Shown in pieces: positions 14,661-55,869 of a stretch of 64,000 nt of DNA. Made by a program: the position numbers and the translations under genes. Origin of the DNA: Pseudomonas oryzihabitans (GTDB lineage Bacteria; Pseudomonadota; Gammaproteobacteria; Pseudomonadales; Pseudomonadaceae); the NCBI RefSeq assembly GCF_001518815.1, contig NZ_CP013987.1, positions 2,626,501 through 2,690,500 of the forward strand, written 5' to 3'. The notes under the pieces were generated by a model. That model worked only from the letters and a program-made list of their open reading frames with translations, had not been told where the DNA came from and did not search any database. Numbering within the stretch: position 1 is the stretch's first letter; each line of letters starts with the position of its first letter.

Positions 14661-14677
14661 TCGCCAGGCCGCCGGCG

Positions 14678-28335: not shown

Positions 28336-30417
<2,082 letters not shown>

Positions 30418-30435
30418 ATGAGGTCTCCCGAAGGG

Positions 30436-31686: not shown

Positions 31687-31750
31687 AGGAGGTCTCTACC
31701 GAACCCTGGCCACCCACGGCGCGCCAGGGGGATGGAAGGAAGCGCGCGGG

Positions 31751-32749: not shown

Positions 32750-32791
32750 GGCAAAGACCTCTCTTCTTCTTGTAATGGGTAGTAGGGGCGA

Positions 32792-33559: not shown

Positions 33560-33585
33560 AGCAGGATTCTCCAGGGGTGGGCCGC

Positions 33586-34413: not shown

Positions 34414-34630
34414 GGCATTACTCCCGGTTCGAGGACGTGGCGTCGGGTTCAGGACTCATGAACGACGCGACGGCGCCTGACGGTAGGAATGCACACCATG
34501 GGAAGTTGATCTGGAAGCTGTTCATAGTGACCTACTTATTGTTATGAGTCAGAAATGAAGCGTTCTTGGATTATGCAAGGGTGAACCTGAGCGGCAATGG
34601 CGCTGTTCTACCCTGTGGAACAGTGACGCT

Positions 34631-36718: not shown

Positions 36719-37527
36719 CGCTGGCCACCCGTGCTCTTGCGCGCCAGGAAGGCGGCGACCGACTCCTGATGCTCGCTGGAGGTGTAGCAGATACCCTGGG
36801 CCTGGCTGCCCATGGCCGAGATCTGGCCCTGGGTCAGCTCGAAGGTATTGTTGAGGATCGACTTGCTCAGGCCCAGTGCCGTGGCGGAACCGGCGGACAG
36901 TTGCAGCGCCCAGTCCTGGGCCGCTGGCAGCAAGGCGTCGTGGGGCACCACCCGGTCGATCATGTTGATGCGCTCGGCTTCGCCCGGCGCGACGGTACGA
37001 CCGGTGAAGATCAATTCCTTGGCCCGGCTCAGGCCGACCCGCCGTGGCAGGAAATAAAGGCCACCGCCGTCAGGGATGAGGCCTCGGGCGATGTAGCTCA
37101 TAGCGAAGGACGCCTGCTCGGACGCGATGATGAAGTCGCAGCTCAATGCCATGTCGCAGCCCAGCCCGGTGGCGGCGCCGTTGACCGCGGCGATGGTCGG
37201 CTTGGGCAGGTTGTGCAGCAGCGAAACGGCGTGGTGAACCCGTTGCTGGCGCTTCCAGCCGTTGAAGGCCACCGAACCGGCCGGCGCACTCATGCGCGCC
37301 TGCATGCCCTTGATGTCGCCACCGGCGCAGAAGCCCTTGCCGGTACCGGTCAGGATCAGCGCCTTGATCTCGCTGTCGGCGGCGATACGCTCCAGGTGCT
37401 CGATCAGCAGCGTTCGCATGTCGTCACTGATGGCGTTGCGCGCTTCAGGACGGTTGAGCGTCAGGGTGGCGATGCCCTGGGTCACCGTCAGCTCGATGGG
37501 GGTCGACGATTCGGGAGCTGTCGTCAT
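36715..37527 (-). CDS. Enoyl-CoA hydratase/isomerase family protein
   Basis: A 270-residue crotonase-fold enzyme with NRPEARNAISDDM, GKGFCAGGDIKGM (oxyanion hole), NGAATGLGCDMALSCDF and ARGLIPDGGGLYFLPRRVG. The residue pattern at the two usual catalytic Glu positions (GCDMALSCDF and FAMSYIARGLIPDGGG) lacks the second canonical Glu of mitochondrial-type hydratases, so isomerase or specialised activity is possible. It is the first gene of the block, translationally coupled to the CoA ligase, and divergent from the IclR regulator 84 bases away. Confidence 0.88.
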   Translation of the reverse strand: MTTAPESSTPIELTVTQGIATLTLNRPEARNAISDDMRTLLIEHLERIAADSEIKALILTGTGKGFCAGGDIKGMQARMSAPAGSVAFNGWKRQQRVHHAVSLLHNLPKPTIAAVNGAATGLGCDMALSCDFIIASEQASFAMSYIARGLIPDGGGLYFLPRRVGLSRAKELIFTGRTVAPGEAERINMIDRVVPHDALLPAAQDWALQLSAGSATALGLSKSILNNTFELTQGQISAMGSQAQGICYTSSEHQESVAAFLARKSTGGQR

Positions 37528-37611: not shown

Positions 37612-38445
37612 ATGACAACGCAGCCATTCCACCAGGTGGAACACGCCATCGCCGAGCCGAACGCCGCCGACATGCCTGGCCAGGGCAAGGCGCCGGCCAA
37701 CCGCTCGCTGGAGCGTGGCCTGGATGTCCTGCGGGCCTTTCGTCCGGGCACCGAATACCTCACCAATGGTGACCTCAGCGACCTCCTCGGCCTGGCCAAG
37801 TCCACCGTCAGCCGCCTGACCCAGACCCTGGTGCGCACCGGCTTTCTGGACTACGACGGCGGCCGCAGCGCCTATCGCCTGGCGCCGACCTTTCTCGGCC
37901 TGGCCCATGCCATGCACCAGGGCAGCAGCCTCTTGCAGGCCGCCTCGCCGCTGATGATCAAGGTGGCGCGGGAACACCAGGTCAACGTAAGCCTGGCGGC
38001 GGCGGACCGCGACGAGATGATCTACCTGGAGTCGATTCGCCTGAGTCAACGCAAGACCCCGCGCAACGTCCTGGTCGGCCAGCGCCTACCGATGGACATC
38101 ACCTCCCTGGGTCGCGCCTGCCTCGCCGGCCTGGGCGAAGCCCAGCGCGAGACGCTGATCGCCACCTTCTGCGCCCGCCGCTGCGAGGCACGCCGGGCGC
38201 CGCTGGAACAGGAGATCCGCGCCGCCATCGCCAGCGTCCGCAGCAAGGGCTACTGCCTGGCTGCCTGGCAACCCGAAGTGGTCGCCATCGCCACCCCCCT
38301 CGGCCTCCCCGGCTACCGCACCCATGCCCTCAACATCAGCCTGGCCACCCCGCTGTCGGAAGCGGAGATCGAGGAACGCTATGCCGGGGTGCTGCTGGAA
38401 TTGGCCAGGGAGATCAGGGCGGCCTGTGGGGTGGTGGCTGGATGA
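37612..38445 (+). CDS. IclR-family transcriptional regulator
   Basis: A 277-residue regulator. The winged helix (about residues 28-90) includes SLERGLDVLRAF, LTNGDLSDLLGLAKSTVSRL and RTGFLDYDGGRSAYRLAPTF. The C-terminal IclR effector domain includes NVSLAAADRDEMIYLESIR and LPMDITSLGRACLAG. The start at 37612 follows GGAGA; the longer open frame upstream runs antisense through the hydratase gene and is not coding. Its divergent position points to control of the ech-ligase-ABC-porin-fadB block, with a pathway acid or acyl-CoA as likely effector. Confidence 0.92.
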   Translation: MTTQPFHQVEHAIAEPNAADMPGQGKAPANRSLERGLDVLRAFRPGTEYLTNGDLSDLLGLAKSTVSRLTQTLVRTGFLDYDGGRSAYRLAPTFLGLAHAMHQGSSLLQAASPLMIKVAREHQVNVSLAAADRDEMIYLESIRLSQRKTPRNVLVGQRLPMDITSLGRACLAGLGEAQRETLIATFCARRCEARRAPLEQEIRAAIASVRSKGYCLAAWQPEVVAIATPLGLPGYRTHALNISLATPLSEAEIEERYAGVLLELAREIRAACGVVAG

Positions 38446-39961: not shown

Positions 39962-40015
39962 TGTGCGGCCAGCCTTTAGTCATGGCGAGCAAGGCACCTT
40001 GGCCACCCAGCCTGC

Positions 40016-40942
40016 TCAATGGCCAAGCCAGTGGGCCGCTTCTTTCCAGGGCCCCACGGTGACCAGCTCCTCCAGGGTTTCCAGCACGATCTTTTCCCAG
40101 CTCAGGGCCAGGCGGCTGCTGCGGCGTTCCTTGAGCCGCGCCAGGGCCACCGTCGAGCGGATGCCTGGTCGCTCGATCTCGTGGCCGACCAGTTCGCCGC
40201 GGTCGATGTCCTGCTGCACGGCGGCGTGGGCGAGGATCGAATAGCCCTGCCCTGCGGCGACCAGCTTCTTGGTCAGGCCGACACTGTCCACCTCCAGGAT
40301 CACGTTCAGGCGCACCGTGTTCTGCGCTGCCACCTGCTCCACCAGGCGTCTGTTGCTGTGCGGCAGCCCGGGCAGGATCAGCGGCACCTCGCCCAGCGCC
40401 GACAGCCGCTGCGAGCGACTGGCTTCGCCCGGCGGCCCTACCAGCACCATCCGCTCGCTGAACAGCGGCCGCACCTCGAAGGCTTCCAGCAACGGCTGGT
40501 TGTAGACCACGGCCACCTCGATGCGCCCCTGCAGCAGCCACTCCTGCAGCGAGGTGCTCAAGCCCTCCAGGGCATGCAGTGAGGCCTTGGGCCAACGCTG
40601 ACGAAACTTCTGGATCAACTGGGGACCGACCAGCGAACCGATCGCCGGTGGCAGGCCTACCGCCAGGTGGCCCCGCTCCTCCTCGGCACTGCTGCGCACA
40701 TGGTCGGCGGTTTCCTCCAGATACCGCAGCATCACCTCGGCACGCTCTACCAGCCGTGCTCCCGCGGCGGTCAGTTCCACCCCCTTGCCGTGGCGGGTGA
40801 AAAGCTCGACCCCCAGTTGCTCTTCGAGCTTGGCGATCTGCCGGCTGAGCGCGGGTTGAGCGACATAGAGTTCTCGCGCAGCGCGGCTGAAGCCGCCGCA
40901 CTGAGCGACTTTGACGAAGGAGCGAAGCTCGCGAATATCCAT
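40016..40942 (-). CDS. LysR-family transcriptional regulator
   Basis: A 308-residue regulator with N-terminal DNA-binding helix-turn-helix (FVKVAQCGGFSRAARELYVA, QPALSRQIAKLEEQLG) and a LysR effector domain. It is divergent from the dctA gene at 41103 across 160 bases and so most likely controls the whole dctA-to-hydrolase run. The pattern resembles the Nac/cynR-like and tricarballylate-type LysR branches, but the effector is not readable. Confidence 0.9.
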   Translation of the reverse strand: MDIRELRSFVKVAQCGGFSRAARELYVAQPALSRQIAKLEEQLGVELFTRHGKGVELTAAGARLVERAEVMLRYLEETADHVRSSAEEERGHLAVGLPPAIGSLVGPQLIQKFRQRWPKASLHALEGLSTSLQEWLLQGRIEVAVVYNQPLLEAFEVRPLFSERMVLVGPPGEASRSQRLSALGEVPLILPGLPHSNRRLVEQVAAQNTVRLNVILEVDSVGLTKKLVAAGQGYSILAHAAVQQDIDRGELVGHEIERPGIRSTVALARLKERRSSRLALSWEKIVLETLEELVTVGPWKEAAHWLGH

Positions 40943-41102
40943 GGCAACCCCATGCTTTCAAAGCATAGCTTTTGATGAAAATAAGGTTTTTGTCCACCTA
41001 AAGCGACTTATCTATGCTCGCATCAAATAGCTCGTAGGGGGAATTGGCTATCCCTACAGGCCAATCACAAGAACAACGACGCCCGCAGGGCGAGGACACG
41101 CC

Positions 41103-42452
41103 ATGACTCTGTTGAAGAAACTGCACGTGCAGGTGCTGATCGCTCTGGTCGCCGCCATCATCGTCGGCTTCGCCGCCCCGGGTTGGGCGGTCGCGATGAA
41201 GCCGCTGGGCCAGGCATTCATTGCCCTCCTGAAGATGATGCTCGCCCCCATCGTCTTCGTGACCCTGGTCCACGGCCTCACCCATGTCCAGGACATGCGC
41301 AAGCTGGGTCGCCTGGGGATGAAGTCCCTGGCGTACTTCGAGGTGGTCAGCACCGTCGCCATGCTGGTCGGCTTCGTCCTGGTCAATCTCGTGCAGCCCG
41401 GCAACGGCCTGCACGCCACCAACCTCGCCGAATCCACCGCTGCCATCAAGGCGACGTCGAGCGCGGGCGAGATCTCGGTAACCGGCTATCTGCTCAGCCT
41501 CATCCCGCACACCCTGGTCGATGCCTTCGCCAAGGGCGACATCATCCAGGTGCTGCTCATCTCGCTGCTGGCGGGCATCGCCATCAACCGCACCTGTGGC
41601 CCCGAATCCATCGCGGTACGCGCCCTCGACGAAGCCCAGACCATCCTGTTCAAGATGCTCGGCTTCATCATGAAGCTCGCGCCGCTGGGCGCCTTCGGAG
41701 CCATGGCCGCCGCCATCGGCAGTTACGGCGGCGCCACCCTGCTCTATCTGCTCAAGCTGATCGCGGTCTACTACGCCGCCTCGCTGTTCTTCGTCTTCGG
41801 CGTGCTGGGCAGCATCAGCTGGTCGATCGGCCTGCCGTTCATGGCGGTGTTGCGCCTGATCCGCGACGAGATCCTGCTGGTGTTCGGCACCGCCTCCGGC
41901 GAGGTGGCCTTCCCGCGCCTGATCGAGAAACTCAAGCGCAGCGGCTGTGACGAGGTGGTGGTGGGCTTCGTGCTGCCGGCCGGTTACAGCTTCAACCTGG
42001 ATGGCACCGCCATCTACATGGCCATCGCCGTTGGCTTCATCGCCCAGGCCACCGACACCCCCTTCTCGCTCTGGCAGCAACTGGGTTTGCTCGCGGTCCT
42101 GAGCATCACCTCCAAGGGCGGCACCACGGTGGCTGGCGGCGCCTTCATCAAGCTGGCGGCCACCCTGCAGTCGGTGCACGTCCTGCCACTGAGCGGTCTG
42201 GGCCTGCTGTTCGGCATCGATCGCATCATGGCCACCGCCACGGCCTTGACCAACATCGTCGGCAACACCGTCGCGGTGTTCGCCATCGCCCGCTGGGAGG
42301 GCAGCTTCGACCGTGACGCCTTCACCCGCGCCACGGGCAAAACGCCCGGCCGCAGCCTGCTGCGCCCCTCCGCCGCGGCTATCCGAGAAGCCCAGGCAGA
42401 AGCTCAGGCCGAAGCCGTCGCTACCTCCTCCTCTTCCACCCTGCGCTCCTGA
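41103..42452 (+). CDS. dctA: DctA-family dicarboxylate:cation symporter
   Basis: A 449-residue inner-membrane symporter, first gene of the catabolic run. Motifs are FGTASGEVAFPRLIEKLKR (where typical DctA has SSSE-type serines; here T-A-S-G-E), GFVLPAGYSFNLDGTAIYMA, and SKGGTTVAGGAF. The changed hairpin serines and the GGTTVAGG variant suggest a different acid preference from the copy at 16106. The C-terminal tail is rich in Glu/Ala/Ser. Downstream genes follow at 12, 10, 57, 26 and 25 bases or overlap, so a single transcript is likely. Confidence 0.9.
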   Translation: MTLLKKLHVQVLIALVAAIIVGFAAPGWAVAMKPLGQAFIALLKMMLAPIVFVTLVHGLTHVQDMRKLGRLGMKSLAYFEVVSTVAMLVGFVLVNLVQPGNGLHATNLAESTAAIKATSSAGEISVTGYLLSLIPHTLVDAFAKGDIIQVLLISLLAGIAINRTCGPESIAVRALDEAQTILFKMLGFIMKLAPLGAFGAMAAAIGSYGGATLLYLLKLIAVYYAASLFFVFGVLGSISWSIGLPFMAVLRLIRDEILLVFGTASGEVAFPRLIEKLKRSGCDEVVVGFVLPAGYSFNLDGTAIYMAIAVGFIAQATDTPFSLWQQLGLLAVLSITSKGGTTVAGGAFIKLAATLQSVHVLPLSGLGLLFGIDRIMATATALTNIVGNTVAVFAIARWEGSFDRDAFTRATGKTPGRSLLRPSAAAIREAQAEAQAEAVATSSSSTLRS

Positions 42453-42464
42453 CAGGACACCACC

Positions 42465-43025
42465 ATGCATCGTCTCGCCCCCGTCGACCCGCAGCACCTC
42501 AACGCCGCGCAACAGGAGATCTACGACCGCATCGCCAGCGGTCCCCGTAAAGGCGTCCGCGGCCCCCTGGCCATCTGGCTGCACCGCCCGGAACTGGCGG
42601 CCTGCGCCCAGGCCCTGGGCCGCTACTGCCGCTACGACAGCTGCCTGGAACCGCGTCTGTCCGAGCTGGCCATCCTGCTGCTCGGCCGCCACTGGCTCGC
42701 CGAATACGAATGGGCCGCGCACAAACCCTTCGCCCTGGAGGCCGGGCTGGATCCAGACGTCATCGAGGCAATCCGCCTTGGCGAGGAGCCCGCATTCCAG
42801 CGTCGCGATGAGCATCTCGTTTACCGCTTCGTTCGCGAGCTGCACGAGCAGCGCCAGGTGGGCGATGACCTCTACCAGGCCTTCGTCGCCGAGCTGGGCA
42901 ACGACGCGGCGGTCGACTTGGTCGGCATCGCCGGCTACTACACGCTGATTTCCATGACCATCAAGGTGTTCGAGGTTCCGCCACCCGTCGGCGTCGCCCC
43001 CGAATTGCCCGCCACCCTTGCCTGA
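42465..43025 (+). CDS. Carboxymuconolactone decarboxylase-family protein
   Basis: A 186-residue AhpD-fold protein. It contains LSELAILLLGRHWLAEYEWAAHKP-type sequence (the conserved E-W-x-x-H segment) and LIVYRF-like helix residues, but no CxxC pair, so it is not an AhpD peroxidase; it falls in the CMD group that includes 4-carboxymuconolactone decarboxylase and related uncharacterised proteins. Its neighbours (lactonase, amidohydrolase, dehydrogenase) agree with a role on a carboxylated lactone. Exact reaction not known. Confidence 0.8.
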   Translation: MHRLAPVDPQHLNAAQQEIYDRIASGPRKGVRGPLAIWLHRPELAACAQALGRYCRYDSCLEPRLSELAILLLGRHWLAEYEWAAHKPFALEAGLDPDVIEAIRLGEEPAFQRRDEHLVYRFVRELHEQRQVGDDLYQAFVAELGNDAAVDLVGIAGYYTLISMTIKVFEVPPPVGVAPELPATLA

Positions 43026-43035
43026 GGAACCTTTT

Positions 43036-43854
43036 ATGACCGACCAACTTCCCCGCAGTGACCGCCTCCAGGGCAAGGTCGCCATCGTCACCGGTGCCGG
43101 TTGCGTCGCCGCCGGCTGGGGCAACGGCCGAGCGGTGGCCACCCTCTTCGCCCTGGCCGGCGCCAAGGTGTTTGCCGTGGACCGCGACCTCGGCGCGCTC
43201 GAAGAAACCCTGGCGCGCATTCGCGAAGCCGGTGGCGAGGTGACCCCTCATGCCTGCGACGTCACCGACAGCGACGCGGTGGCGGCCATGGTAGAGGCCT
43301 GTCAGGCCACCTATGGCCAGGTCGACATCCTGGTCAACAACGTCGGCGGTTCGGCCGCCGGCGGTGCCGTCGCCCTGGCCGAGGAGCGCTTCGATGCCCA
43401 GATCGCCCTTAATCTCAAGAGCGTCTACCTGACCTGCAAGCACGTCCTGCCACTGATGGAAGCCCAGGGCAGCGGCGCCATCGTCAACACCGCTTCCACC
43501 TCGGGCATTCGCTGGACCGGCTCGGCCCAGGTGGCCTATGCCGCCAGCAAGGCCGGCGTGATTCAGCTTTCACGGGTGACGGCGGTGGAATACGCGCCCA
43601 AGGGCATCCGGGTGAACACCGTGGTGCCCGGCCAGTTGCACACGCCTATGGTCGAAGCGCGCCTGGCCGGCCAGCGTACCGGCGGCGACGTCAGCAAGCT
43701 GCTCGATACGCGCCTGGCGCGCATCCCCCTGGGCTTCATGGGTGATGGCCGCGATACCGCTTTCGCCGCGCTGTACCTGGCCAGCGACGAGGCGCGCTTC
43801 GTCACCGGGACCGAGATCGTGGTCGACGGCGGCATGACCGCGCGCTGCGACTAG
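43036..43854 (+). CDS. Short-chain dehydrogenase/reductase
   Basis: A 272-residue SDR with the cofactor motif in IVTGAGCVAAGWGNGRAVA (a long variant of TGxxxGxG), NNVGGS, Ser in TASTSGIRW and the YxxxK catalytic pair in YAASKAG. The Asp after the second strand (FAVDRD) favours NAD over NADP. The start at 43036 follows GAGGAA; an upstream in-frame TTG at 43018 would overlap the previous gene. The C-terminus ends in VDGGMTARCD, normal for the family. It would oxidise a hydroxyl group of the pathway intermediate. Confidence 0.88.
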   Translation: MTDQLPRSDRLQGKVAIVTGAGCVAAGWGNGRAVATLFALAGAKVFAVDRDLGALEETLARIREAGGEVTPHACDVTDSDAVAAMVEACQATYGQVDILVNNVGGSAAGGAVALAEERFDAQIALNLKSVYLTCKHVLPLMEAQGSGAIVNTASTSGIRWTGSAQVAYAASKAGVIQLSRVTAVEYAPKGIRVNTVVPGQLHTPMVEARLAGQRTGGDVSKLLDTRLARIPLGFMGDGRDTAFAALYLASDEARFVTGTEIVVDGGMTARCD

Positions 43855-43911
43855 TTCGCCCAGGGCGGCGCCGGCCGCCCGGTTCTTTCTTTTCCAACCC
43901 TGGAGCGCCCG

Positions 43912-44853
43912 ATGGCCGATGCCCACGTTCCCCCTACGCGCCGCCGCTTTCTGAAGCAGGCAACCCTTGCCGCTGCCGCCCTGGGGCTGGGCGCCGCCCC
44001 CCTCGTCCAGACCCATGGAGCCACCATGAACGCTTCCCCTGCCCTGACCGGCCTCTGGGATTGTCACACCCATATCTATGGCCCCTGGGCACGCTTTCCC
44101 TTGCCGGCCAACGCCGCCTACACCCCGGCGCCGGCGCCCTTCAGCGAACTGCTGGCCCTGCATCGCCGCCTGGGCATCAGCCACGGCGTACTGGTCCAGG
44201 CCGCACCCTATGGCACCGATCACAGCGCCATCCTGGCCGCCATCGCGGAAAGCGACGGCCACTACCGCGGCGTCGGCCTGATCGACCAGGACACCAGCGA
44301 CGCCCAGCTGCAGGCACTGCACGACGGCGGTCTACGCGGTATCCGCTTCAATCTGATGGGGCACCTGCCGGGCGCCCGCGACCCCCAGCAGCTACGCCGG
44401 CTCGCCGAGCGCGTTGCCCCACTGGGCTGGCACGTGCTCATCCATGGCGAACTGCCCACCCTGCTGCCGTTCCTGGAACAGTGGCGCACCCTGCAGGTGC
44501 CGCTGGTGATCGACCACATGGCCCGCCCCGACCTCACCCAGCCGCTGGACGAGGCAGGCTTTGCCGCGCTGCGCAAGGAACTGCGGCGTCCGGATCGCTG
44601 GATCAAGCTGTCCGGTATCGACCGGGCCATGCAGGGTCAGCCCGGCCCCTGGCCCCAGGCCCTGGATCGCGTGCGGCAACTCCTCGAATGCGCGCCGGAG
44701 CGTGCCCTCTGGGGCAGCGACTGGCCGCACCCGAACATCAAGGGTCCGGTTCCCGACGATGGCCAGCTGCTGGACTTCGTGCTGCAGGTCTGCGACAGCC
44801 GGGCGCTGCAACAGGCCGTGCTGATCGACAACCCGCGTCGGCTATACGCCTAG
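43912..44853 (+). CDS. Tat-exported amidohydrolase-2 family protein (LigI / lactone hydrolase-like)
   Basis: A 313-residue TIM-barrel metal-dependent hydrolase. The N-terminus carries a twin-arginine signal (TRRRFLKQ followed by ATLAAAALGLGAAPL), predicting export of the folded enzyme to the periplasm. Metal and active-site motifs are DCHTHIYG (about residue 48), HGELP, IDHMARPDL and ALWGSDWPHPN, the pattern of 2-pyrone-4,6-dicarboxylate lactonase, 4-sulfomuconolactone hydrolase and D-galactarolactone isomerase. Characterised relatives are cytoplasmic, so the Tat signal is unusual. An in-frame internal ATG (MNASPALTG, about residue 38) would give a cytoplasmic form, but the upstream start is the one with the intact signal sequence. 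Confidence 0.86.
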   Translation: MADAHVPPTRRRFLKQATLAAAALGLGAAPLVQTHGATMNASPALTGLWDCHTHIYGPWARFPLPANAAYTPAPAPFSELLALHRRLGISHGVLVQAAPYGTDHSAILAAIAESDGHYRGVGLIDQDTSDAQLQALHDGGLRGIRFNLMGHLPGARDPQQLRRLAERVAPLGWHVLIHGELPTLLPFLEQWRTLQVPLVIDHMARPDLTQPLDEAGFAALRKELRRPDRWIKLSGIDRAMQGQPGPWPQALDRVRQLLECAPERALWGSDWPHPNIKGPVPDDGQLLDFVLQVCDSRALQQAVLIDNPRRLYA

Positions 44854-44879
44854 CCCACCTGCTTCCCCGAGGAGAGCCC

Positions 44880-45815
44880 ATGGACGCCATCGAATGGCAA
44901 CCGAGTCGCCGGGTACCCGACCCGGCAGTACGCGAACTGGATTCGCGCTTCGCCCAGTACCGTCTGGCCCATGCCAAGGTAGAGCGCCTGGCAACGGGCA
45001 TGCGCTGGGCCGAAGGTCCGGTCTGGTTCGGCGATGGCCGTTACCTGCTGTTCACCGACCTGCCCAACGACCGCATCCTTAGGTGGGACGAAGCCACCGA
45101 AACCCTCGGCGTCTTCCGCCAGCCCGCTCACCAGGCCAACGGCCTGACCCGTGATCGCCAGGGCCGACTGCTGGCCTGCGAGCACGGCGGGCGCCGCATC
45201 ACCCGCACCGAGTACGACGGCAGCCTGACGGTGCTGGCCGACCAATTTGCCGGTAAGCCCCTGAACTCGCCCAACGACATCGTGGTGAAGGGCGACGACA
45301 GCATCTGGTTCACCGATCCGCCCTTCGGCCTGGTCAGCGACTACATGGGGCGCCAGGGCACGGCGGAGTTACCCGGCAATTTGTATCGCCTGGATCCGGA
45401 CGGCCAGCTGCACTGTGTCGCCGAAGACCTCGAAGGCCCCAATGGCCTGGCCTTCTCGCCGGATGAACGCACCCTCTATCTGGTCGAATCTCGCGCACGC
45501 CCGCGCCGGATCGTGGCCTATGACGTCGATGACCAGAACCATCTGACCGGTCGACGCGAACTCATCGATGCCGGCAGTGGGCTACCCGACGGCCTACGTG
45601 TGGACGTGGACGGCAATCTCTGGTGTGGCTGGGGCGCTGCCGAGCCAGGACTGGATGGTGTCCGTGTCTTCGCTCCGGACGGCACCGCCATCGGCCACAT
45701 CGACCTGCCTGAACGCTGCGCCAACCTCTGCTTTGGCGGCCCACGGCGCAATCGCCTGCTGATGGCCTCCACCACCTCGCTCTACGCGCTGTTCGTCAAT
45801 ACCCGCGGCCTGTAG
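44880..45815 (+). CDS. SMP-30/gluconolactonase-family lactonase
   Basis: A 311-residue six-bladed propeller lactonase. Metal-site residues appear in GMRWAEGPVWFGDGRYLLF (Glu), KPLNSPNDIVVKGDDSIWFT (Asn), DLEGPNGLAFSPDERTLY (Asn) and GLPDGLRVDVDGNLWCG (Asp). It has no signal peptide, so it acts in the cytoplasm, unlike the upstream Tat-exported hydrolase. The start at 44880 follows GAGGAGAG. Members hydrolyse sugar-acid lactones to the free acid. Having two different lactone-opening folds in adjacent genes suggests a lactone intermediate on each side of the membrane. Confidence 0.87.
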   Translation: MDAIEWQPSRRVPDPAVRELDSRFAQYRLAHAKVERLATGMRWAEGPVWFGDGRYLLFTDLPNDRILRWDEATETLGVFRQPAHQANGLTRDRQGRLLACEHGGRRITRTEYDGSLTVLADQFAGKPLNSPNDIVVKGDDSIWFTDPPFGLVSDYMGRQGTAELPGNLYRLDPDGQLHCVAEDLEGPNGLAFSPDERTLYLVESRARPRRIVAYDVDDQNHLTGRRELIDAGSGLPDGLRVDVDGNLWCGWGAAEPGLDGVRVFAPDGTAIGHIDLPERCANLCFGGPRRNRLLMASTTSLYALFVNTRGL

Positions 45816-45840
45816 CGGCCGCACCTGCCTGGAAGCCACC

Positions 45841-46638
45841 ATGAAAAAAACAAGATCCGCTTCGCTCCTCGTGACCACCGGCCTGGCCGGTCTGGTGAGC
45901 CTCGCCCCGACCGTCGACGCCGCTGAACTGAAGATCATCGCCAGCGGCGCGCTCAAGGGCGCCATGGCGCAGTTGCAGCCAGCTTATGAGAAGGCCACTG
46001 GCAACACCCTGACCATCGCCTGGGGCCCCTCGATGGGCACTTCACCGGAATCCATTCCTGAACGCATCAAGCACAGGGAACCCATGGACCTGGCCATCAT
46101 GGCCGACGAGACCCTTGCCCTGCTCGGCCCCACGGGCGTCTTCGACATGGCGAGTCGCCGCGAAATCGCCGAATCCCGTATTGGCGTAGGGGTGCCCAAG
46201 GGCCGCGCTCACCCTGATGTGAGCACGGTGGCGGCCTTGCGTACGGCGCTCTTGCAGGCGCCCCGGATCGCCTACTCCCAGGGGGCCAGCGGCGTCTTCG
46301 TGCGAAACGAGCTGTTCCAGCGCCTGGGCATCAGCGAGCAGGTCAAGGGCAAGACGCTCGAGATTCAGGGCAAGGAGCTGGTGGGTACCGCCCTCGCCCG
46401 GGGCGATGCCGACATCGGCATGCAGCAGGTCAGCGAGCTCAAGGTGACTCCTGGCGTCGACTATCTCGGCCCGCTGCCGGAAGAGGTGCAAAAGGTCAGC
46501 CGCTTCTGCGCTGCGATAGCGAGTAACACTCCTCACACTCAGGTCGCCAGCGAATTCGTGGCCTTCCTGGGCAGTCCCGCTGCCCGTCATCTGCTGGTCG
46601 AAAGCGGCCTCGAACCCATCGCTGGAGCTCACCCATGA
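45841..46638 (+). CDS. ModA-like periplasmic protein, Ais paralogue (possible acid isomerase)
   Basis: A 265-residue exported protein (basic start MKKTRSA, hydrophobic core, cleavage near VDAA). It aligns along its length with the Ais-like protein at 13872: PAYEKATG, PSMGTSPESIPERIKHREP, YSQGASGVFVRNELFQR, and ARGDADIGMQQVSELK are shared in order with PAYEKATG, PSMGDTPQAIPNRLARNEP, YSDSASGVYLSRILF and ARGEAQLGFQQLSELK. There are no modB/modC-type genes nearby. By analogy with aconitate isomerase it may isomerise an unsaturated carboxylic acid in the periplasm instead of binding molybdate. Overlaps the next gene by four bases. Confidence 0.72.
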   Translation: MKKTRSASLLVTTGLAGLVSLAPTVDAAELKIIASGALKGAMAQLQPAYEKATGNTLTIAWGPSMGTSPESIPERIKHREPMDLAIMADETLALLGPTGVFDMASRREIAESRIGVGVPKGRAHPDVSTVAALRTALLQAPRIAYSQGASGVFVRNELFQRLGISEQVKGKTLEIQGKELVGTALARGDADIGMQQVSELKVTPGVDYLGPLPEEVQKVSRFCAAIASNTPHTQVASEFVAFLGSPAARHLLVESGLEPIAGAHP

Positions 46639-47534
46639 ATATCCCTGCTTCCCTGCTGTTGGCCGGCTCCCTGACATTGGCCAGTGCCCTGGCCTACGCG
46701 GTACCGGTATCGCCACCTCTGACCCAGACGCTGGTAAAGCACGATAACGTTCAGATCGAGGTCAATGCCCAAGGTAAAGGTCCCGTGATCGTGATGCTGC
46801 CCTCTCTCGGCCGCTCGGGGCGCGACTACGATCAGGTGGCCGCCTACCTGGTCGAGCAGGGTTTCCGCATCGTACGGCCCGAGCCCCGGGGCATAGGCCG
46901 TAGCCGGGGCCCCATGGACAGTCTTTCGGTTCACGACTTCGCCCACGATGTCGCCGCCGTGGTTGAGCACGAACACCAAGGTCCAGTGGTGGTGGTCGGC
47001 CATGCCTGGGGCAACTTCCCGGCGCGGCAGCTCGCGGTGGATCGTCCGGACCTGGTTCGCGGCGTGGTCCTGGCCGCCGCCTCGGCCGGCAAGGTGCCAC
47101 CCGGTTCGACCGAAAAGCCGATCAACGCCGAGATGCGCCAGGCCATCGACGGCGCCGGGGACCCGTCGCTGTCCGAAGCACAGCGCCTGGTCTATCTGCG
47201 CAAGGCCTTCTTCGCCCCGGGCAACGATCCGCGCCTCTGGCTGAATGGCTGGCATGAAGCCACCCACGAAGCCGAATCCCATGCGCGCAACACCACTCCC
47301 GTGGACGACTATTTCGCCGCTGGCAAGGCGCCCATCCTCGACCTCCAGGGTGAGGCCGATGCGGTGGCGCCCCGTCGCTTCTCGGGTGTGCTCAAGAGCA
47401 TGCTGGGTGATCGAGTACAGGTGGAAGTGCTGAAGAACGCCGGCCACGCCATGGCCCCGGAACAGCCTAAGGCCATGGCTGACGCCATCGGTGCCTTTGC
47501 CCGCACCTGCTACGAGCAGCCTCCACACAGTTGA
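46635..47534 (+). CDS. Exported alpha/beta-hydrolase-fold protein with Ala at the nucleophile position
   Basis: A 299-residue protein with a signal peptide (LLLAGSLTLASALAYA). The fold is clear: MLPSLGRSGRDYDQVAAYL, RPEPRGIG, VVVVGHAWGNFPAR, ILDLQGEADAV (acid Asp) and NAGHAMAPEQP (His). The nucleophile elbow reads G-H-A-W-G with Ala124 where Ser, Cys or Asp is expected; a paralogue at 53347 has the same change. It may be a binding protein, a pseudo-enzyme or use other chemistry. It starts inside the end of the Ais-like gene (ATGA), so the two exported proteins are made together. Confidence 0.83.
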   Translation: MNIPASLLLAGSLTLASALAYAVPVSPPLTQTLVKHDNVQIEVNAQGKGPVIVMLPSLGRSGRDYDQVAAYLVEQGFRIVRPEPRGIGRSRGPMDSLSVHDFAHDVAAVVEHEHQGPVVVVGHAWGNFPARQLAVDRPDLVRGVVLAAASAGKVPPGSTEKPINAEMRQAIDGAGDPSLSEAQRLVYLRKAFFAPGNDPRLWLNGWHEATHEAESHARNTTPVDDYFAAGKAPILDLQGEADAVAPRRFSGVLKSMLGDRVQVEVLKNAGHAMAPEQPKAMADAIGAFARTCYEQPPHS

Positions 47535-47692
47535 CGTGCAGTGGCGCATAGGGCTGGCTGTCGGTTTGCGAAATAGATGCGACCCCTGGCCAACGAGTCT
47601 GCAATAGGGAGCTCCAGATCTTCAAAATAGCTGCGACTGCTGGTAGCAATCAATGCGACGGCCCAAGGACTTGCTTGTAATAGCTACGGCTG

Positions 47693-47723
47693 TCGGTGGA
47701 TTCTTGCTTGAAGAATCCACCGA
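47693..47723. terminator. Perfect 13-bp hairpin downstream of the hydrolase gene
   Basis: TCGGTGGATTCTT (47693-47705) pairs perfectly with AAGAATCCACCGA (47711-47723) around the loop GCTTG, followed by TGGCCTTTTAT. The T-run begins five bases after the stem, so it is an acceptable factor-independent terminator for the dctA-to-hydrolase transcript about 160 bases after the last stop codon. Confidence 0.5.
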
Positions 47724-47762
47724 TGGCCTTTTATGCAGTAGGAAAGGCTTAAGGTCTGCTCT

Positions 47763-47798
47763 CGACCCAAAGCTGCCGTTGGCGTAGGGCAGCTAGCG
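47763..47798 (-). repeat. 36-bp dispersed repeat, copy 1 (inverted relative to copy at 53119)
   Basis: This 36-base block matches the reverse complement of 53119-53154 at 34 of 36 positions (CGACCCAAAGCTGCC... against CGACCCATAGCTGCC...). The two copies lie at either side of the orphan-gene island, about 5.3 kb apart, in opposite orientations. Confidence 0.75.
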
Positions 47799-48379
47799 TC
47801 CACGTCCGGACGGCTGATGAGGCCTGTACCCAATGCCCCCACCGACTTGAATAATCGGCGACAAGGTAGGGATTCCAAATTCCTACAATCACCTGGACGC
47901 CCTGCATCTATCGTACTGGTAGAACCATGCCCCAAATATTAAGTTGCCTACCATCGGTCAGCGGCGCGGCGACAAGCTCCGATGCAGCGTTAACCGGTTC
48001 GTGTGAACCTTCGCTGATTCGTAGAGCTCAAGGGTATCCAATATAGGAGATCGTACGCGTGCACGTGATTAGGCAGCGACGAGCCGCCGGCTGAGGGACT
48101 GCGCGATAGCCTTCACTGATGAACCGATTGATCAGACAGGCATCGTTTTTTTGGACGCTCCGAGTAGATCCAGATCGGCTTTACTATGAGCCAACTATAG
48201 CTACGCAGCTCAATAGTTATTGATATTTCCCCTCTACTGTATATGCCGGAAATCGCCTAGGCAACGACATCCTACCCGAGTAGAAAGCACAAGCTCAGGC
48301 CCAAATGGCATAAATTAGCAACAGCAGTTTTATTGCCTTCTAAATCCTGACAGAACGCGGCACAAAGCTATAGCGAAGC

Positions 48380-48419
48380 GTTGCGCGATCTCAGCGAACG
48401 GTAGCTGAGATCGCGCAAC
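48380..48419. repeat. Perfect 16-bp inverted repeat with 8-base loop
   Basis: GTTGCGCGATCTCAGC (48380-48395) and GCTGAGATCGCGCAAC (48404-48419) are perfect reverse complements around GAACGGTA. No T-run follows, so it is not a standard terminator. The 11-base part GCGATCTCAGC occurs again directly at 48546-48556, between this palindrome and the solenoid gene promoter. Confidence 0.7.
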
Positions 48420-48611
48420 CAGCGTTAGAAATTTAATAATTTTCAAATTCGATAGTGTTCGAGATTGCGAAAAACGTATTGCCTAACGATATCCAAATAG
48501 ACTGACTGTGATTGTCAACGTTCGTTAACTTCGCAAAATCGGTTAGCGATCTCAGCACCTCCGTTGCTTATCGCAATACTAGCAATCTCACATTGCCATC
48601 TTATAAGGCTA

Positions 48612-48639
48612 TTGACTTTCAGGAGCGCTAAGCTATGGT
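48612..48639 (+). promoter_or_regulatory. Sigma70-like promoter for the solenoid gene
   Basis: TTGACT (48612-48617) and TATGGT (48634-48639) are separated by 16 bases, 60 bases before the start codon at 48700. The -35 box differs from consensus at one position and the -10 at two. Confidence 0.4.
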
Positions 48640-48699
48640 TGCTACGCGGACCTTTCAGAGTGAAGCCCGCGAATTAATGGATAAACGCGAGGTGTAAAC

Positions 48700-49841
48700 A
48701 TGAAACTAACCATGATATGCGAAGGCTTGGCGGCAAATCCACCACGTGTAACAGCTATAGATGTAGCAAACTTTAGTCAAATATTGAATGCAGCTGGCCC
48801 TAACACCCAAATCACTCTTTCAAACGCTCAAGGCGGCCTATTGCAGAATTAGCGCCAGTCATTCAGTCCGCTGGCAGCAGAAACCTTAGTCTTCAAATAG
48901 ACGGATTGAGAGCCTCGGAAAGTCAAGCCGTACAAATAATCAATTCCTCCGTCGGCCCTAACACCTCAGTCGACATCTCTTCCATCAACAGCTTTACTCA
49001 GCAGAGCATATTAAATGTGGTCAGTGCGGCTGCAGGTAAGAAAGTTTCAGTAAAGGCCAATTGTGCTACTGCATCTGAAGCCCAGGCTGTATTTATCGCA
49101 AACGCTATAAAGGACACACCTATTGGACTAGGCTTTCTCGCTTTAAACGCTCTTCCAAGCCAAAGTATCCCCGCCGTTTTTGATGCGGTAGGATCCAAGG
49201 AGATATCCGCAGAACTCAATGCACTTACCAGCACTATCGATCAGGCAAAGAATGTAATTAATAATGCAACCCCTGCCACAAAACTTTCCTTAGTAAATGC
49301 CGAAGCTTGGGGCTACGCTGGGATTGCGCAAATCGTCCAAGCGGTAGGGGCTAGAGAATTTATTATCAGCATAAATGCTGAAAGCATGACGATAAACGAT
49401 CTGAATAACTTAATACAAATAACTAACCCCAATACATCTCTAAGCCTTAGCATGGCCCATGCGATTGCTGTCGGAAACATTTCTAATCTTATAAATTTAT
49501 CTGCAGGCAAGAAGCTTTCTTTTAGCATGAGCGGCCAAACATCTACTCAAGATCAACTCAGGGCTGCGGTCACCAATGCTAACGGAAGCACCTCGACCTC
49601 AATAGATACTGCGCACGCAGTTATGTTAAATGTAATGCTTGATTTAATTTCCACATCAAATAACAAGGAGCTTGCACTTACCTACAACGGATCACAATTG
49701 GTAGTCACGCCTACGGATGGAAATTACGTGGTCCGAGCTCTACAAGTTGCAAAACCAACAACCTCAATTACCGTAAACTCTATCGGTGTGACGAATTTCA
49801 GCTTGCAGCATACACTGGAAATAGTTCGAGCCGCGGGATAG
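48700..49841 (+). pseudogene. Helix/strand solenoid repeat protein, broken by a one-base deletion
   Basis: The gene starts at an ATG with GAGGTG six bases upstream, but the frame ends at TAG 48850-48852 after 50 codons. The next frame is open to 49841 (312 codons from a TTG at 48906). Restoring one C in GGCGGCC (48832-48838) joins them into a single 380-residue protein, and the joined residues (NAQGGPIAELAPVIQSAG) fit its repeat pattern. About 14 units of 26-27 residues alternate between two types, one ending like AAGKKVSVKAN and one like GPNTSVDISS, each with a hydrophobic helix and a short strand: an LRR-like solenoid. There is no signal peptide. A+T-rich, no family recognised. Decay, phase variation or a sequencing error in the C run are all possible. 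Confidence 0.65.
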
Positions 49842-49849
49842 TAGATTGT

Positions 49850-49893
49850 GCGCCTCTGAAGATCGTTGAAAATTTTCAGAGGCGCTTTATTCT
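49850..49893. terminator. Factor-independent terminator after the solenoid gene
   Basis: GCGCCTCTGAA (49850-49860) pairs with TTCAGAGGCGC (49875-49885), followed by TTTATTCTT. The 11-bp stem plus T-rich tail is a good terminator for the plus strand, and it also separates the convergent DUF2845 gene. Confidence 0.75.
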
Positions 49894-49907
49894 TCCATTT
49901 TTCAACA

Positions 49908-50258
49908 CTAAGGATTTTGCGGGTAAACGTCGTCATTATCACCTGAGCCCGTTGGACGATATGTTACGATATTAGCAACATTATCGCCAGAAAATCTAAT
50001 TTGAGATACGCTTCCATTCCTAGGCCCATAATAGAATAGTACGACTACAGCGCTTCTAAACCTTGGATTATTCGATGAGTTATTTCCTACCATAACTTTT
50101 CTTTTAAAATCTGGCGAGCCGCACTTTTCTACTACCTCTGACAACGTATCTCCAACAGAGACTAAACCTGTCGAACACCGCATGCTTGCATTACTGCTGA
50201 GCGAGATCGAGATAAGTAATACACCAAATAGCCACAAAAAACTGCTCATTACTCTCAT
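49908..50258 (-). CDS. DUF2845 small exported protein
   Basis: A 116-residue protein with a signal peptide (SSFLWLFGVLLISISLSSNA) and a mature domain MRCSTGLVSVGDTLSEVVEKCG, the hallmark of DUF2845 (a Cys-containing start, then VSVGDTxxEVxxKCG). The family is common in Pseudomonas with no known function; the two Cys probably form a disulfide in the periplasm. Start 50258 has GGAGG four bases upstream; 50249 is possible. A+T-rich like the neighbouring solenoid gene and convergent with it. Confidence 0.75.
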   Translation of the reverse strand: MRVMSSFLWLFGVLLISISLSSNASMRCSTGLVSVGDTLSEVVEKCGSPDFKRKVMVGNNSSNNPRFRSAVVVLFYYGPRNGSVSQIRFSGDNVANIVTYRPTGSGDNDDVYPQNP

Positions 50259-50386
50259 AAGTCCTCCGGCAGATACTCTGAAGTCGCTTAGTCTCCAGTG
50301 TAGTAGCTTTATAGCTTTTGTCATACATGGTTCGTGTTAGGCAATGATGAGAGATTCCCGACCTATGGTCCCATTAGGAGTTTGGG

Positions 50387-50548
50387 ATGGCTGTTTATCC
50401 TGTGCACTACTCGATGCCGAAAGGCGTGTATCCAGAAGTGGCGCCTACCAGAAATTTCAACCGCCGGGCGGCTTATCGTTTCCTCGAGACCGCGCGTCGA
50501 GGAATGGCAGTGGCGAAACGTTGGCTGCGTTTACCCTGGTACCTATAG
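50387..50548 (+). CDS. Small ORF, 53 residues, arginine- and tyrosine-rich
   Basis: Starts at ATG 50387 with TAGGAG 6 bases upstream and ends at TAG 50546-50548. The peptide begins MAVYPVHYSMPKGVYPEVA, contains NRRAAYRFLETARRGMAVAK and ends RWLRLPWYL: basic, with one probable amphipathic helix. Base composition is GC-rich at third positions, unlike the surrounding non-coding bases. It lies 60 bases upstream of the co-directional membrane-protein gene at 50609 and could be in the same transcript. No family recognised. Confidence 0.5.
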   Translation: MAVYPVHYSMPKGVYPEVAPTRNFNRRAAYRFLETARRGMAVAKRWLRLPWYL

Positions 50549-50608
50549 GTCAGTCACTGGCACGTCCATCGCCTGATCTCTCTTGACACGAAGAAAAGGA
50601 CTTTGAAC

Positions 50609-51247
50609 ATGGCCAGCAGTACCGAGCCAGATGACGCGCCGGAATGGCTCGTGCAGAAGTCACGCAGGGCGCGGCTGATCGCCTTTGCCGTATGCCTTGC
50701 GATCGGAAGCCTGGCGACACTCGCCGTCATCGAACTCGCCGGCCGGGCAATGCCCGGACCCATGGCCTCCCTGAATGCCGAAGGCCCTGCTCGTCGCCTC
50801 GACGCTCCCCATCCCTCTGACGTGAAGCGTGTCGATACCGCCCGCGGAACGGTACGCCGCGCTGTGCCTTCCGCGACGGAAATACTGCCGGCGATCGAGG
50901 CCAATTCACCTCAGAACATCCATCAGCCGGCAACGCCCGCCAGCAAGCAAACGGTGTTCACGGACCAGAACTGGACGCCGCGCGGCGCTGCTAACGTGGT
51001 GCGCTTCAGCGAAGCACCCCGCGGCCAGGCGCTCGAACCGGCGCCACCTCAGCCAACGAAGGTAACAGTGGTATCCGAGACGCCAAGTATGAAGGATCGG
51101 GCCTGCTGGCCAAACACGGCCGGGAGTCTGGAGCGCCGCAACTGCCGGTCCGCAGTTGGCCGATTGCAACCCGTCGCCACTGGCTGCTATCGGCCAAAAG
51201 CGGTCACCGAGTATTTGCAAAAGGTGGGTGATTCACCTGGTAGTTGA
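50609..51247 (+). CDS. Hypothetical membrane-anchored protein, 212 residues
   Basis: An unrecognised protein with a cytoplasmic N-terminus (ASSTEPDDAPEWLVQKSRRA), one membrane helix (LIAFAVCLAIGSLATLAVIEL, quoted in part; residues about 24-44) and a Pro/Ala-rich periplasmic part. The start at 50609 follows AAGGA. The last 35-40 residues (CRSAVGRLQPVATGCYRPKA) are encoded by sequence resembling a Pseudomonas intergenic repeat (GGCCGATTGC ... GGCTGCTATCGGCC), so the original C-terminus may have been replaced. Its stop overlaps the convergent 560-residue gene by 15 bases. Confidence 0.6.
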   Translation: MASSTEPDDAPEWLVQKSRRARLIAFAVCLAIGSLATLAVIELAGRAMPGPMASLNAEGPARRLDAPHPSDVKRVDTARGTVRRAVPSATEILPAIEANSPQNIHQPATPASKQTVFTDQNWTPRGAANVVRFSEAPRGQALEPAPPQPTKVTVVSETPSMKDRACWPNTAGSLERRNCRSAVGRLQPVATGCYRPKAVTEYLQKVGDSPGS

Positions 51248-52915: not shown

Positions 52916-53346
52916 GGCGTTTGCTCCCCTGGGGATTTCGCTGAGACGTGTTTATCCAACTAGATCGACTGTTACCCTGAATCGCCCCTAGTTTCGTGGA
53001 TGCTCTTAAGCCCTAAGAGTAGTCTATGCAGGTCACTGCGAAAGGCGGCCAGGCATAGGTTGAGGCTGTCTGCTAGTGCGTAATAATTCAGAGCAGTTCG
53101 TGACAGGTAGCTTTTGGCCGCTAGCTGCCCTACGCCAAAGGCAGCTATGGGTCGGTAGCGGTCGCTTTTCGACGTCCTCTTCTGGCCGATTGCTGTCATT
53201 GCTATTTCCGGTTTTGGTATTTCCCGAATGTCGCAACAATTTCGGGAACCGACACTGGCTGCAGCCTTATCCGCCCGCTCAACTATCGCCAATTTCCTTT
53301 CTTCCGACGTGGCAGGGGCTTTCCTGCCACGTCGCTCAGCTTTGGC
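52916..53346. other. Intergenic region with degenerate repeats at the right edge of the island
   Basis: A 431-bp region between two minus-strand genes. It holds the second copy of the 36-bp repeat (53119-53154) and, around it, further repeat-like blocks (CAGGTAGCTTTTGGCCGCTAG at 53104, TCTGGCCGATTGCTGTCATT at 53182) of the kind that also appears at 51145-51205. Small open frames here encode only repeat-derived peptides. A promoter for the 560-residue gene is not obvious. Confidence 0.5.
53119..53154 (+). repeat. 36-bp dispersed repeat, copy 2
   Basis: Reads CGCTAGCTGCCCTACGCCAA and onward; its reverse complement matches 47763-47798 at 34 of 36 positions. It is embedded in other repeat-like sequence (53091-53205). 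Confidence 0.75.
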
Positions 53347-54222: not shown

Positions 54223-54450
54223 TGCATCTGTTCCTTGTTGTTTTCGGATGTCACGCAGCAGGCGTGATCCCCGAACGTGATGCAAAGCCTCACGCGGAAC
54301 AAATGCTTTATCCGGATGGATTCCCATAGTGTTCCGGCATGGACAGGCACATGCCGAAACGCTATGAGGAGCCATGTCGAAAAGGTTTTGGCGGGCAAAC
54401 GAAGGGCCGCCCTAAGCTGGCGCGACCCCTACAAGAACAAGGTCCGCCCT

Positions 54451-55794: not shown

Positions 55795-55869
55795 GGAAAG
55801 CCGGATGGCGCTGAACCTGGCCCCGGCCCAGAGCCCGAAGAGCGCGACTCCTGCGCGCTCGTTGCCCAC

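What the first reader, a model, noticed from the sequence alone, without database searches (positions are those of the whole stretch)
41103..47534. Candidate periplasmic acid/lactone processing module coupled to a DctA symporter
Within one probable transcript three of seven products carry export signals (Tat amidohydrolase, Ais-like protein, alpha/beta-hydrolase-fold protein), while SDR, CMD protein and SMP-30 lactonase are cytoplasmic. This reads as: hydrolyse or isomerise a complex carboxylate outside, import through DctA, then oxidise and open a second lactone inside. I know of no described pathway with this set.
Basis: inference. Interest (0 to 1): 0.78.

Follow-up and report, generated by a model that had tools for sequence, protein, structure and literature searches.

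The report
Conserved Pseudomonas organic-acid breakdown operon
A block of seven genes found intact in some Pseudomonas species looks like an undescribed pathway for taking up and breaking down an unknown organic acid or lactone, with some of its proteins probably working outside the inner membrane.

Summary
The gene list and coordinates are right. The operon, with a divergent LysR gene, has the same order in all nine distinct Pseudomonas loci examined and a conserved divergent promoter. In 298 Pseudomonadaceae genomes, close SDR and Ais relatives occur in the same three. It is a real, probably mobile unit: two relatives lack the 15.9 kb segment carrying it.

The interpretation needs correcting. 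(1) The transporter misses the DctA cut-off and has Thr where related carriers have the substrate-binding Arg. (2) The Tat amidohydrolase has two LigI (PDC lactonase) positions replaced in 19 of 19 cluster members; export is not conserved (5 of 9 loci), while a start site with Shine-Dalgarno just after the Tat region is kept in 9 of 9, suggesting a cytoplasmic form. (3) The exported alpha/beta protein lacks the catalytic serine, as does a second exported copy 6 kb away. (4) A better trans-aconitate-type cluster lies elsewhere in the window.

An SDR-amidohydrolase core, mostly with CMD, recurs in beta- and alphaproteobacteria with other carboxylate transporters and CoA/beta-oxidation genes; such a block also flanks this operon. 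Best reading: an undescribed catabolic operon, substrate unknown, cytosolic core with periplasmic additions.

The parts
40016..40942 (-). LysR-type regulator, divergent from the operon
   Evidence: Pfam LysR_substrate and HTH_1; 77-83% identical and divergent in the 8 other distinct loci
40943..41102 (.). Divergent promoter region with a conserved ATGC-spacer-GCAT inverted repeat and conserved CTTT..AT.AAAATAA.GTTTTTG and TCTATGCTC blocks
   Evidence: DNA alignment of 9 loci
41103..42452 (+). SDF-family symporter, DctA-like paralogue with the TM8 Arg replaced by Thr
   Evidence: PF00375 300 bits; below NCBIfam DctA cut-off; Thr in 11 of 11 distinct cluster transporters, Arg in 4 other SDF proteins of the own genome
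42465..43025 (+). CMD-like protein (AhpD/carboxymuconolactone decarboxylase type, weak match)
   Evidence: PF02627 E 0.028, below cut-off; relatives in plasmids annotated as CMD family
43036..43854 (+). Short-chain dehydrogenase, probably NAD-type
   Evidence: PF13561; best PDB relative 5jc8, 366 bits; YxxxK and TGAGCV..GWG motifs conserved in 19 rows; NAD preference inferred from the Asp in AVD
43863..43880 (+). GC hairpin with T-rich tail between SDR and amidohydrolase, possible partial terminator
   Evidence: consensus match only
43912..44853 (+). LigI-like amidohydrolase with Tat signal; the mature part also has its own internal start at 44026
   Evidence: PF04909, TIGR01409, active-site comparison, internal GGAG-ATG conserved in 9 of 9 loci
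44017..44028 (+). Internal Shine-Dalgarno (GGAG) and in-frame ATG just after the Tat region
   Evidence: sequence and comparison
44880..45815 (+). SMP-30/gluconolactonase-family lactonase, no export signal seen
   Evidence: PF08450 199 bits; PDB 3e5z and 3dr2; E, ND, PNG and PDG positions conserved in 14 rows
45841..46638 (+). Exported Ais-family protein (ModA-like fold, Ais-type PSMG..IP.R motif)
   Evidence: PF13531; predicted fold matches ModA; motif in 9 of 9 operon-type rows
46635..47534 (+). Exported alpha/beta-fold protein with GHAWG elbow (no catalytic Ser)
   Evidence: PF00561; Ala at the nucleophile in 22 of 22 distinct rows
47688..47728 (+). Terminator-like hairpin after the operon
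   Evidence: 18 pairs followed by TTTT
53347..54222 (-). Second exported alpha/beta-fold protein, 61% identical to the first over 257 aligned residues, also GHAWG
   Evidence: a linked second copy in 9 of 9 loci
39964..55863 (.). Segment that carries the operon and the second alpha/beta gene; absent from two close relatives
   Evidence: blastn to G369 and G371: 26 bases between the two matches there
28336..37527 (-). Flanking block: 3-hydroxyacyl-CoA dehydrogenase/hydratase, OprD porin, NitT/TauT-type ABC transporter, acyl-CoA ligase, enoyl-CoA hydratase
   Evidence: beside the operon also in P. corrugata (L010) and P. entomophila (L011)
37612..38445 (+). IclR-type gene divergent from the flanking block (PcaR/PcaU-like)
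   Evidence: TIGR02431 119 bits, below cut-off 285

Best explanation
This is a probably mobile, LysR-controlled catabolic operon for one unidentified organic acid or lactone. Its widespread core is cytoplasmic (SDR, amidohydrolase and CMD protein); the Pseudomonas form adds a dedicated SDF symporter, an SMP-30 lactonase and periplasmic proteins. Proposed order, inferred: the Ais-type protein, with the serine-less alpha/beta proteins, shifts the double bond or tautomer of the substrate in the periplasm; the SDF symporter, which lost the Arg for a second carboxylate, imports a less charged or lactone form; the SDR oxidises a hydroxyl with NAD; the amidohydrolase (made in the cytoplasm from an internal start, and in some species also exported) and SMP-30 open ester or ring bonds; the CMD protein decarboxylates or tautomerises; the acid is passed to CoA ligation and beta-oxidation, whose genes flank the operon here. 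Shown: gene set, order, conservation, presence/absence of the segment, promoter, residue changes, linkage to CoA genes. Inferred: every reaction, the localisation and the substrate.
For: Same eight genes in order in 9 of 9 distinct Pseudomonas loci (gaps). In 298 family genomes the close SDR match occurs in 3 and the close Ais match in the same 3 (hypergeometric 2e-7 ignoring kinship). Promoter conserved in 9. SDR with an amidohydrolase relative in 10 of 10 outside clusters read, CMD relative in 8 of 10, with other transporters: SDF in Paraburkholderia and Agrobacterium, TRAP in Martelella, TctC-type in Cupriavidus and Variovorax. CoA genes in some of the same clusters: acyl-CoA ligase 62% and hydratase 64-66% in Cupriavidus L043, L044 and L053, ligase 64%, hydratase 67% and IclR 51% in V. 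paradoxus L054, ligases and FadJ in Martelella, CoA transferase and thiolase in Agrobacterium. Residue evidence.
Against: No substrate or activity is shown. The nine loci are not independent: four of them are 86-96% identical to each other in Ais DNA. The flanking CoA block exists without the operon in G369, and its ligase in G371, and close ligase relatives are missing from 4 of 9 operon-bearing genomes, so it is not strictly required. No Ais relative was found in the fetched stretches of the beta/alpha clusters. The dual start rests on comparison only: among the five Tat-bearing loci alone an identical codon at an invariant four-fold residue occurs in 4 of 72 cases. The hairpin at 43863 could split the transcript.
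Confidence: 0.6

Rival explanations
1. A trans-aconitate utilisation operon: the Ais-like protein isomerises trans- to cis-aconitate in the periplasm and the symporter imports it.
For: Ais-family motif shared with Ais-type proteins next to a TcuC tricarballylate symporter and TctA/TctC; trans-aconitate use is widespread in bacteria (PMC11495376, abstract and first three of seven parts read).
Against: A cluster nearer to tricarboxylate loci (LysR, OMA tautomerase/PrpF family, DctA, CitMHS, Ais) is at 13872-19602 in the same window; 13 of 13 genus genomes have an Ais relative but only this one the operon type. Isomerase plus importer would suffice, leaving five genes unexplained; the symporter lost the Arg.
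Confidence: 0.12
2. A sugar-acid lactone pathway (uronate/aldarate type): SDR makes a lactone, amidohydrolase isomerises or opens it, SMP-30 hydrolyses it.
For: Family make-up; the two best SMP-30 relatives in the PDB are named gluconolactonases; a weak match of the amidohydrolase to L-fuconolactonase.
Against: No dehydratase or keto-deoxy-acid aldolase among the genes scanned in or beside the operon; flanking and cluster partners are CoA-ligase, hydratase and thiolase genes; CMD and Ais stay unexplained.
Confidence: 0.13
3. A pyrone-dicarboxylate/protocatechuate 4,5-cleavage branch with a PDC lactonase.
For: Amidohydrolase is closest to LigI among solved structures (198 bits); an Ais relative sits near LigA/LigB in two other genomes.
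Against: Positions 130 and 156 of LigI (Arg, Tyr) are His in 19 of 19 cluster amidohydrolases but unchanged in 2 of 2 lig-cluster proteins; no dioxygenase among the operon or flanking genes scanned.
Confidence: 0.05
4. The Ais-like and serine-less alpha/beta proteins are periplasmic binding or sensing partners, not enzymes; only the cytoplasmic genes do chemistry.
For: ModA-type binding fold; no catalytic Ser in the alpha/beta proteins.
Against: No ABC permease or sensor kinase inside the operon; Asp and His of the triad are kept; RutD is an enzyme with a serine-less elbow (recalled; the search did not confirm it).
Confidence: 0.1

Closest known systems
Aconitate isomerase Ais of Pseudomonas sp. 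WU-0701 (Yuhara 2015, seen only as a citation in PMC13188880 and PMC11495376; not held; its ModA-like nature is recalled)
   Same: Exported ModA-fold protein; shares the PSMG..IP.R motif with Ais-type proteins beside tricarboxylate transporters
   Different: Only 37% identical to the Ais-type protein of the second cluster in the window; no tricarboxylate transporter; found with SDR, CMD and lactonases in 9 of 9 loci
LigI, 2-pyrone-4,6-dicarboxylate lactonase
   Same: Amidohydro_2 fold; H31, H33, R124, H180, R183, R217 and D248 kept
   Different: R130 and Y156 are His, and positions 77 and 79 also differ here; variable Tat export; no 4,5-cleavage genes seen
DctA C4-dicarboxylate symporter
   Same: SDF family, NLDGTAIY and SKG motifs
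   Different: Below the curated DctA cut-off; TM8 Arg is Thr; HP2 reads TSKGGTTVAGG
tar system of Bacillus velezensis (TarA PrpF-type isomerase, TarB MFS, TarR LysR; PMC11495376)
   Same: Divergent LysR next to an isomerase and a transporter
   Different: Different isomerase family and transporter; the second cluster in the window is the nearer parallel
L-ascorbate catabolic pathway of Ralstonia eutropha (gluconolactonase and amidohydrolase steps; recalled, not looked up)
   Same: Pairs an SMP-30-type lactonase with an amidohydrolase-family lactonase
   Different: Its other enzymes, as recalled, are not in this operon

Membership tests
Aconitate isomerase (Ais) | Exported ModA-like fold | tested here: met
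   PF13531; predicted model matches ModA chains, TM (query) 0.62-0.73; Sec-type leader read by eye
Aconitate isomerase (Ais) | Ais-type PSMG..IP.R motif | tested here: met
   9 of 9 operon-type rows; 12 of 18 other relatives have it
Aconitate isomerase (Ais) | Close identity to the WU-0701 enzyme and trans/cis-aconitate activity | not testable with these tools
   That sequence was not at hand and the paper is not held; activity needs the bench
Aconitate isomerase (Ais) | Partner tricarboxylate transporter | tested here: not met
   SDF paralogue with Arg to Thr; tricarboxylate transporters adjoin two other Ais proteins
LigI PDC lactonase | Amidohydro_2 fold with HxH and Asp | tested here: met
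LigI PDC lactonase | Arg130 and Tyr156 (site list recalled) | tested here: not met
   His at both in 19 of 19 cluster members
DctA | SDF family | tested here: met
   PF00375 300 bits
DctA | Curated DctA score | tested here: not met
   NF002461 459 bits, cut-off 513
DctA | TM8 Arg for the second carboxylate | tested here: not met
   Thr in 11 of 11 distinct cluster transporters
Serine alpha/beta hydrolase (PcaD type) | Nucleophile Ser in the elbow | tested here: not met
   GHAWG or GHAHG in 22 of 22 distinct rows; TIGR02427 69 bits, cut-off 256
Carboxymuconolactone decarboxylase (PF02627) | Curated Pfam score | tested here: not met
   14.9 bits, cut-off 23
SMP-30 lactonase | SGL propeller with metal-site residues | tested here: met
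   PF08450 199 bits; E, ND, PNG, PDG invariant in 14 rows (metal roles recalled)
Classical SDR | Glycine-rich motif, Ser and YxxxK | tested here: met

The most novel reading that the evidence does not exclude
An undescribed catabolic route in which an Ais-fold isomerase and two serine-less alpha/beta proteins rework the substrate in the periplasm, a DctA relative re-tuned by an Arg-to-Thr change imports it, and one amidohydrolase gene serves both compartments through a Tat signal plus an internal start placed just behind the signal.
Probability: 0.35. Interest if true: 0.72.

Novelty: new variant of a known kind. Interest (0 to 1): 0.5.

Why it matters
The SDR-amidohydrolase-CMD core occurs in gamma-, beta- and alphaproteobacteria from soil, roots, sludge and insects, yet two searches of the held library found no paper with the set. 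Finding the substrate would name enzymes in many genomes. The operon also gives testable cases of three general questions: how an SDF symporter changes substrate, what serine-less alpha/beta proteins do in the periplasm, and whether one gene can feed two compartments through an internal start behind a Tat signal.

Tried and rejected
Rejected: 'Ais-like' as a misreading of a molybdate-binding protein; the ModA models score below their cut-offs (best 37 bits against 62.5) and the Ais-type motif is present. Rejected: PDC lactonase. Rejected: a chance grouping. Weak: the structure model of the alpha/beta protein (mean pLDDT 65) matched many hydrolases, mostly at rmsd of 10 A or more, and says no more than the fold. 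Led nowhere: paper searches for the gene set (no hits), for Ais with periplasm and molybdate (none), for RutD (off-topic), for LigI (off-topic) and for trans-aconitate with RB-TnSeq (listing; of it only passages of PMC9875883 were seen); passages of PMC8959697 did not bear on it. Class-wide samples: Ais at E 1e-20 in 3 of 369 genomes (own, G107, G224), CMD at 1e-20 in 3 of 339 (own, G093, G303), SDR at 1e-70 in 1 of 303, the own, so these samples were too thin to show the beta-proteobacterial clusters. One pattern in the script (second column) was badly written and matched nothing; it is not used. In one search one of eight loci (L014) is a 31-residue match without the operon and was dropped; L023 duplicates L010 (identical Ais DNA) and was counted once. 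In one search the SMP-30 query was in a wrong frame; corrected from then on. Not followed: the CMD relative elsewhere in the own genome (L022).


Full report
Observation. The CMD match is weak (E 0.028, below cut-off). Gaps are -4 to 57 nt. The Tat signal of the amidohydrolase passes its NCBIfam model; the two Sec leaders are read by eye. A weak hairpin lies between SDR and amidohydrolase and a strong terminator-like one follows the last gene.

Conservation. A scan of genome contigs with the Ais-like protein gave eight loci; seven are Pseudomonas species with the same genes in the same order, the eighth is a 31-residue match without the operon. The SDR at E 1e-80 occurs in exactly the same three of 298 (hypergeometric 2e-7, ignoring kinship). 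This makes nine distinct loci: the window, L007 to L013 and L024. They are not equally independent: L007, L008, L010 and L012 are 86-96% identical in Ais DNA. Protein identities of the eight genes to the window are 74-91%. The LysR-symporter intergenic region keeps an ATGC-spacer-GCAT repeat and two further blocks in all nine.

Presence and absence. Within the genus 13 of 13 genomes have an Ais relative at E 1e-15 but only this genome has the operon type. In two relatives (blastn identity of the left flank 96% for G369 and 94% for G371) the match that ends at window 39963, just after the VOC gene, is followed after 26 bases by the match to window 55864; in G369 the stretch 38431-39324 is unmatched as well. 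So 15.9 kb, holding LysR, the operon, an AT-rich stretch and a second alpha/beta gene, was gained here or lost there. A second alpha/beta gene is linked in all nine loci.

The core beyond Pseudomonas. Protein searches of plasmids found the SDR at 68-78% identity in 12 records and CMD relatives. I read ten of those twelve neighbourhoods: an amidohydrolase relative is near the SDR in 10 of 10 and a CMD relative (tblastn 1e-10) in 8 of 10; L047 has an annotated CMD-family gene without such a match, and in L054 I saw none. Partners: Paraburkholderia with an SDF symporter (L042); Cupriavidus with TctC-type receptors, a MmgE/PrpD protein in L043, SMP-30 66-67% (L043, L044, L052, L053), enoyl-CoA hydratase 64-66% and acyl-CoA ligase 62% (L043, L044, L053); Martelella with TRAP, acyl-CoA dehydrogenase, two ligases and FadJ (L046); Variovorax with TctC-type receptors (L047) or with ligase 64%, hydratase 67% and IclR 51% (L054); Agrobacterium with an SDF symporter, CoA transferase and a pcaF-type thiolase (L048); Hyphomicrobiales UR115 (L045) without CoA-gene matches. 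The window's own flanking block (28336-37527) is a hydratase/dehydrogenase, OprD, NitT-type ABC transporter, ligase and hydratase beside an IclR gene, and lies beside the operon also in P. corrugata and P. entomophila. Against a strict bond: G369 and G371 have the ligase without the operon, and close ligase relatives are found in five of the nine operon genomes, the window's own included, and not in the other four; in two of the five (G670, G671) they are not inside the fetched locus and their distance is not established. In the 298-genome sample the ligase occurs in four and the operon in three, overlap two (4e-4 ignoring kinship).

Symporter. The NLDGTAIY and SKG motifs are kept, but the TM8 Arg (GltPh R397 position) is Thr in 11 of 11 distinct cluster transporters (nine Pseudomonas, L042, L048), while four other SDF proteins of the own genome have Arg; a fifth, more distant one (L004) was not in that alignment. 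[quoted passage not shown] The equivalent Arg is said to be conserved in all EAAT-like orthologues of an alignment that includes Bacillus DctA (PMC3737229, passages). A standard C4-dicarboxylate is therefore doubtful.

Amidohydrolase. It is nearest to LigI among solved chains. At twelve LigI positions (list recalled), R130 and Y156 are His in 19 of 19 cluster members (nine Pseudomonas, ten others); positions 49, 77 and 79 vary among them; the two relatives from loci with LigA/LigB genes keep Arg and Tyr. The Tat signal is present in five of nine loci (window, L009, L011, L012, L024), absent in L007, L008 and L010, and interrupted by a stop in L013. In the ten outside clusters I see no Tat signal (by eye). 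All nine Pseudomonas loci keep GGAG and ATG or GTG ten codons before WDCHTH. In the five Tat-bearing loci this site is internal. Of 926 internal ATG/GTG codons in the operons 16 have GGAG at that spacing, and five of the 16 are this very site. Invariant four-fold residues have identical codons in 1 of 65 (nine loci) or 4 of 72 (five loci), Gly 0 of 19 in both. I read this as a cytoplasmic form in all and an added exported form in some; it is comparative evidence only, and an inherited relic of an older start is not excluded.

Alpha/beta proteins. The elbow is GHAWG, or GHAHG in Cupriavidus, in 22 of 22 distinct rows (nine first copies, nine second copies, four outside; 25 rows less three duplicates), with Asp and His kept. 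They are not classical serine hydrolases. In Pseudomonas both copies carry leader-like starts by eye (L012's second copy is cut by the locus end); in the Cupriavidus and Variovorax proteins I recognise none.

Ais. The predicted structure (mean pLDDT 77.8) matches ModA. The operon type shares the PSMG..IP.R motif with 12 of 18 other relatives. Among 15 other Ais loci fetched, six have an MFS gene beside Ais (five by Pfam; the sixth, L026, is TcuC at 752 bits, cut-off 445), one has TctA and TctC, two lie near LigAB, and in the rest I name no partner. The window's second Ais (13872-14660, 37% identical) sits with CitMHS, DctA, an OMA tautomerase/PrpF protein over its cut-off and LysR: a better candidate for trans-aconitate, though the OMA tautomerase call would also fit another tricarboxylate. 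Papers: PMC11495376 (abstract and the first three of seven parts read, further passages found) describes the PrpF-type TarA system; PMC13188880 (passages) cites the WU-0701 enzyme; Yuhara 2015 itself is not held.

Mechanism. Shown: composition, order, conservation, presence/absence, promoter, residue changes, linkage. Inferred: periplasmic double-bond or tautomer shift, import, NAD oxidation, ring or ester opening by two enzymes, decarboxylation or tautomerisation, then CoA ligation and beta-oxidation. The substrate is unknown; a lactone or hydroxy acid with one exposed carboxylate fits the symporter best, a tricarboxylate fits Ais best, and this tension is not resolved.

Verdict. A real, conserved operon that I could not find described, ordinary in its families but new as a set, with three features worth a test: symporter residue, serine-less exported pair and dual start.

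Noticed in passing
window 13872-19602: Second Ais-family gene with CitMHS, DctA, an OMA tautomerase/PrpF-family gene and LysR: a probable tricarboxylate (trans-aconitate-type) cluster combining two unrelated isomerase families.
   Followed up: partly
window 48000-53000: AT-rich part of the extra segment with ORFs that match no Pfam family at E 0.001 (48906-49841, 50603-51247, 51233-52915); only 49908-50324 matches DUF2845.
   Followed up: partly
A possible link of the Ais family to oxalomesaconate-type isomerisation.
   Followed up: partly
L022 (own genome C1:4042338): Second CMD-like gene, 46% identical, apart from the operon.
   Followed up: no
window 28336-37527: ABC, OprD and acyl-CoA block beside an IclR gene, present without the operon in a close relative (G369 for the whole block); its own substrate is unknown.
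   Followed up: partly
L042:6385-7005 and L047:7354-7965: Small genes of about 205 codons without a Pfam match inside two of the SDR-amidohydrolase clusters.
   Followed up: no
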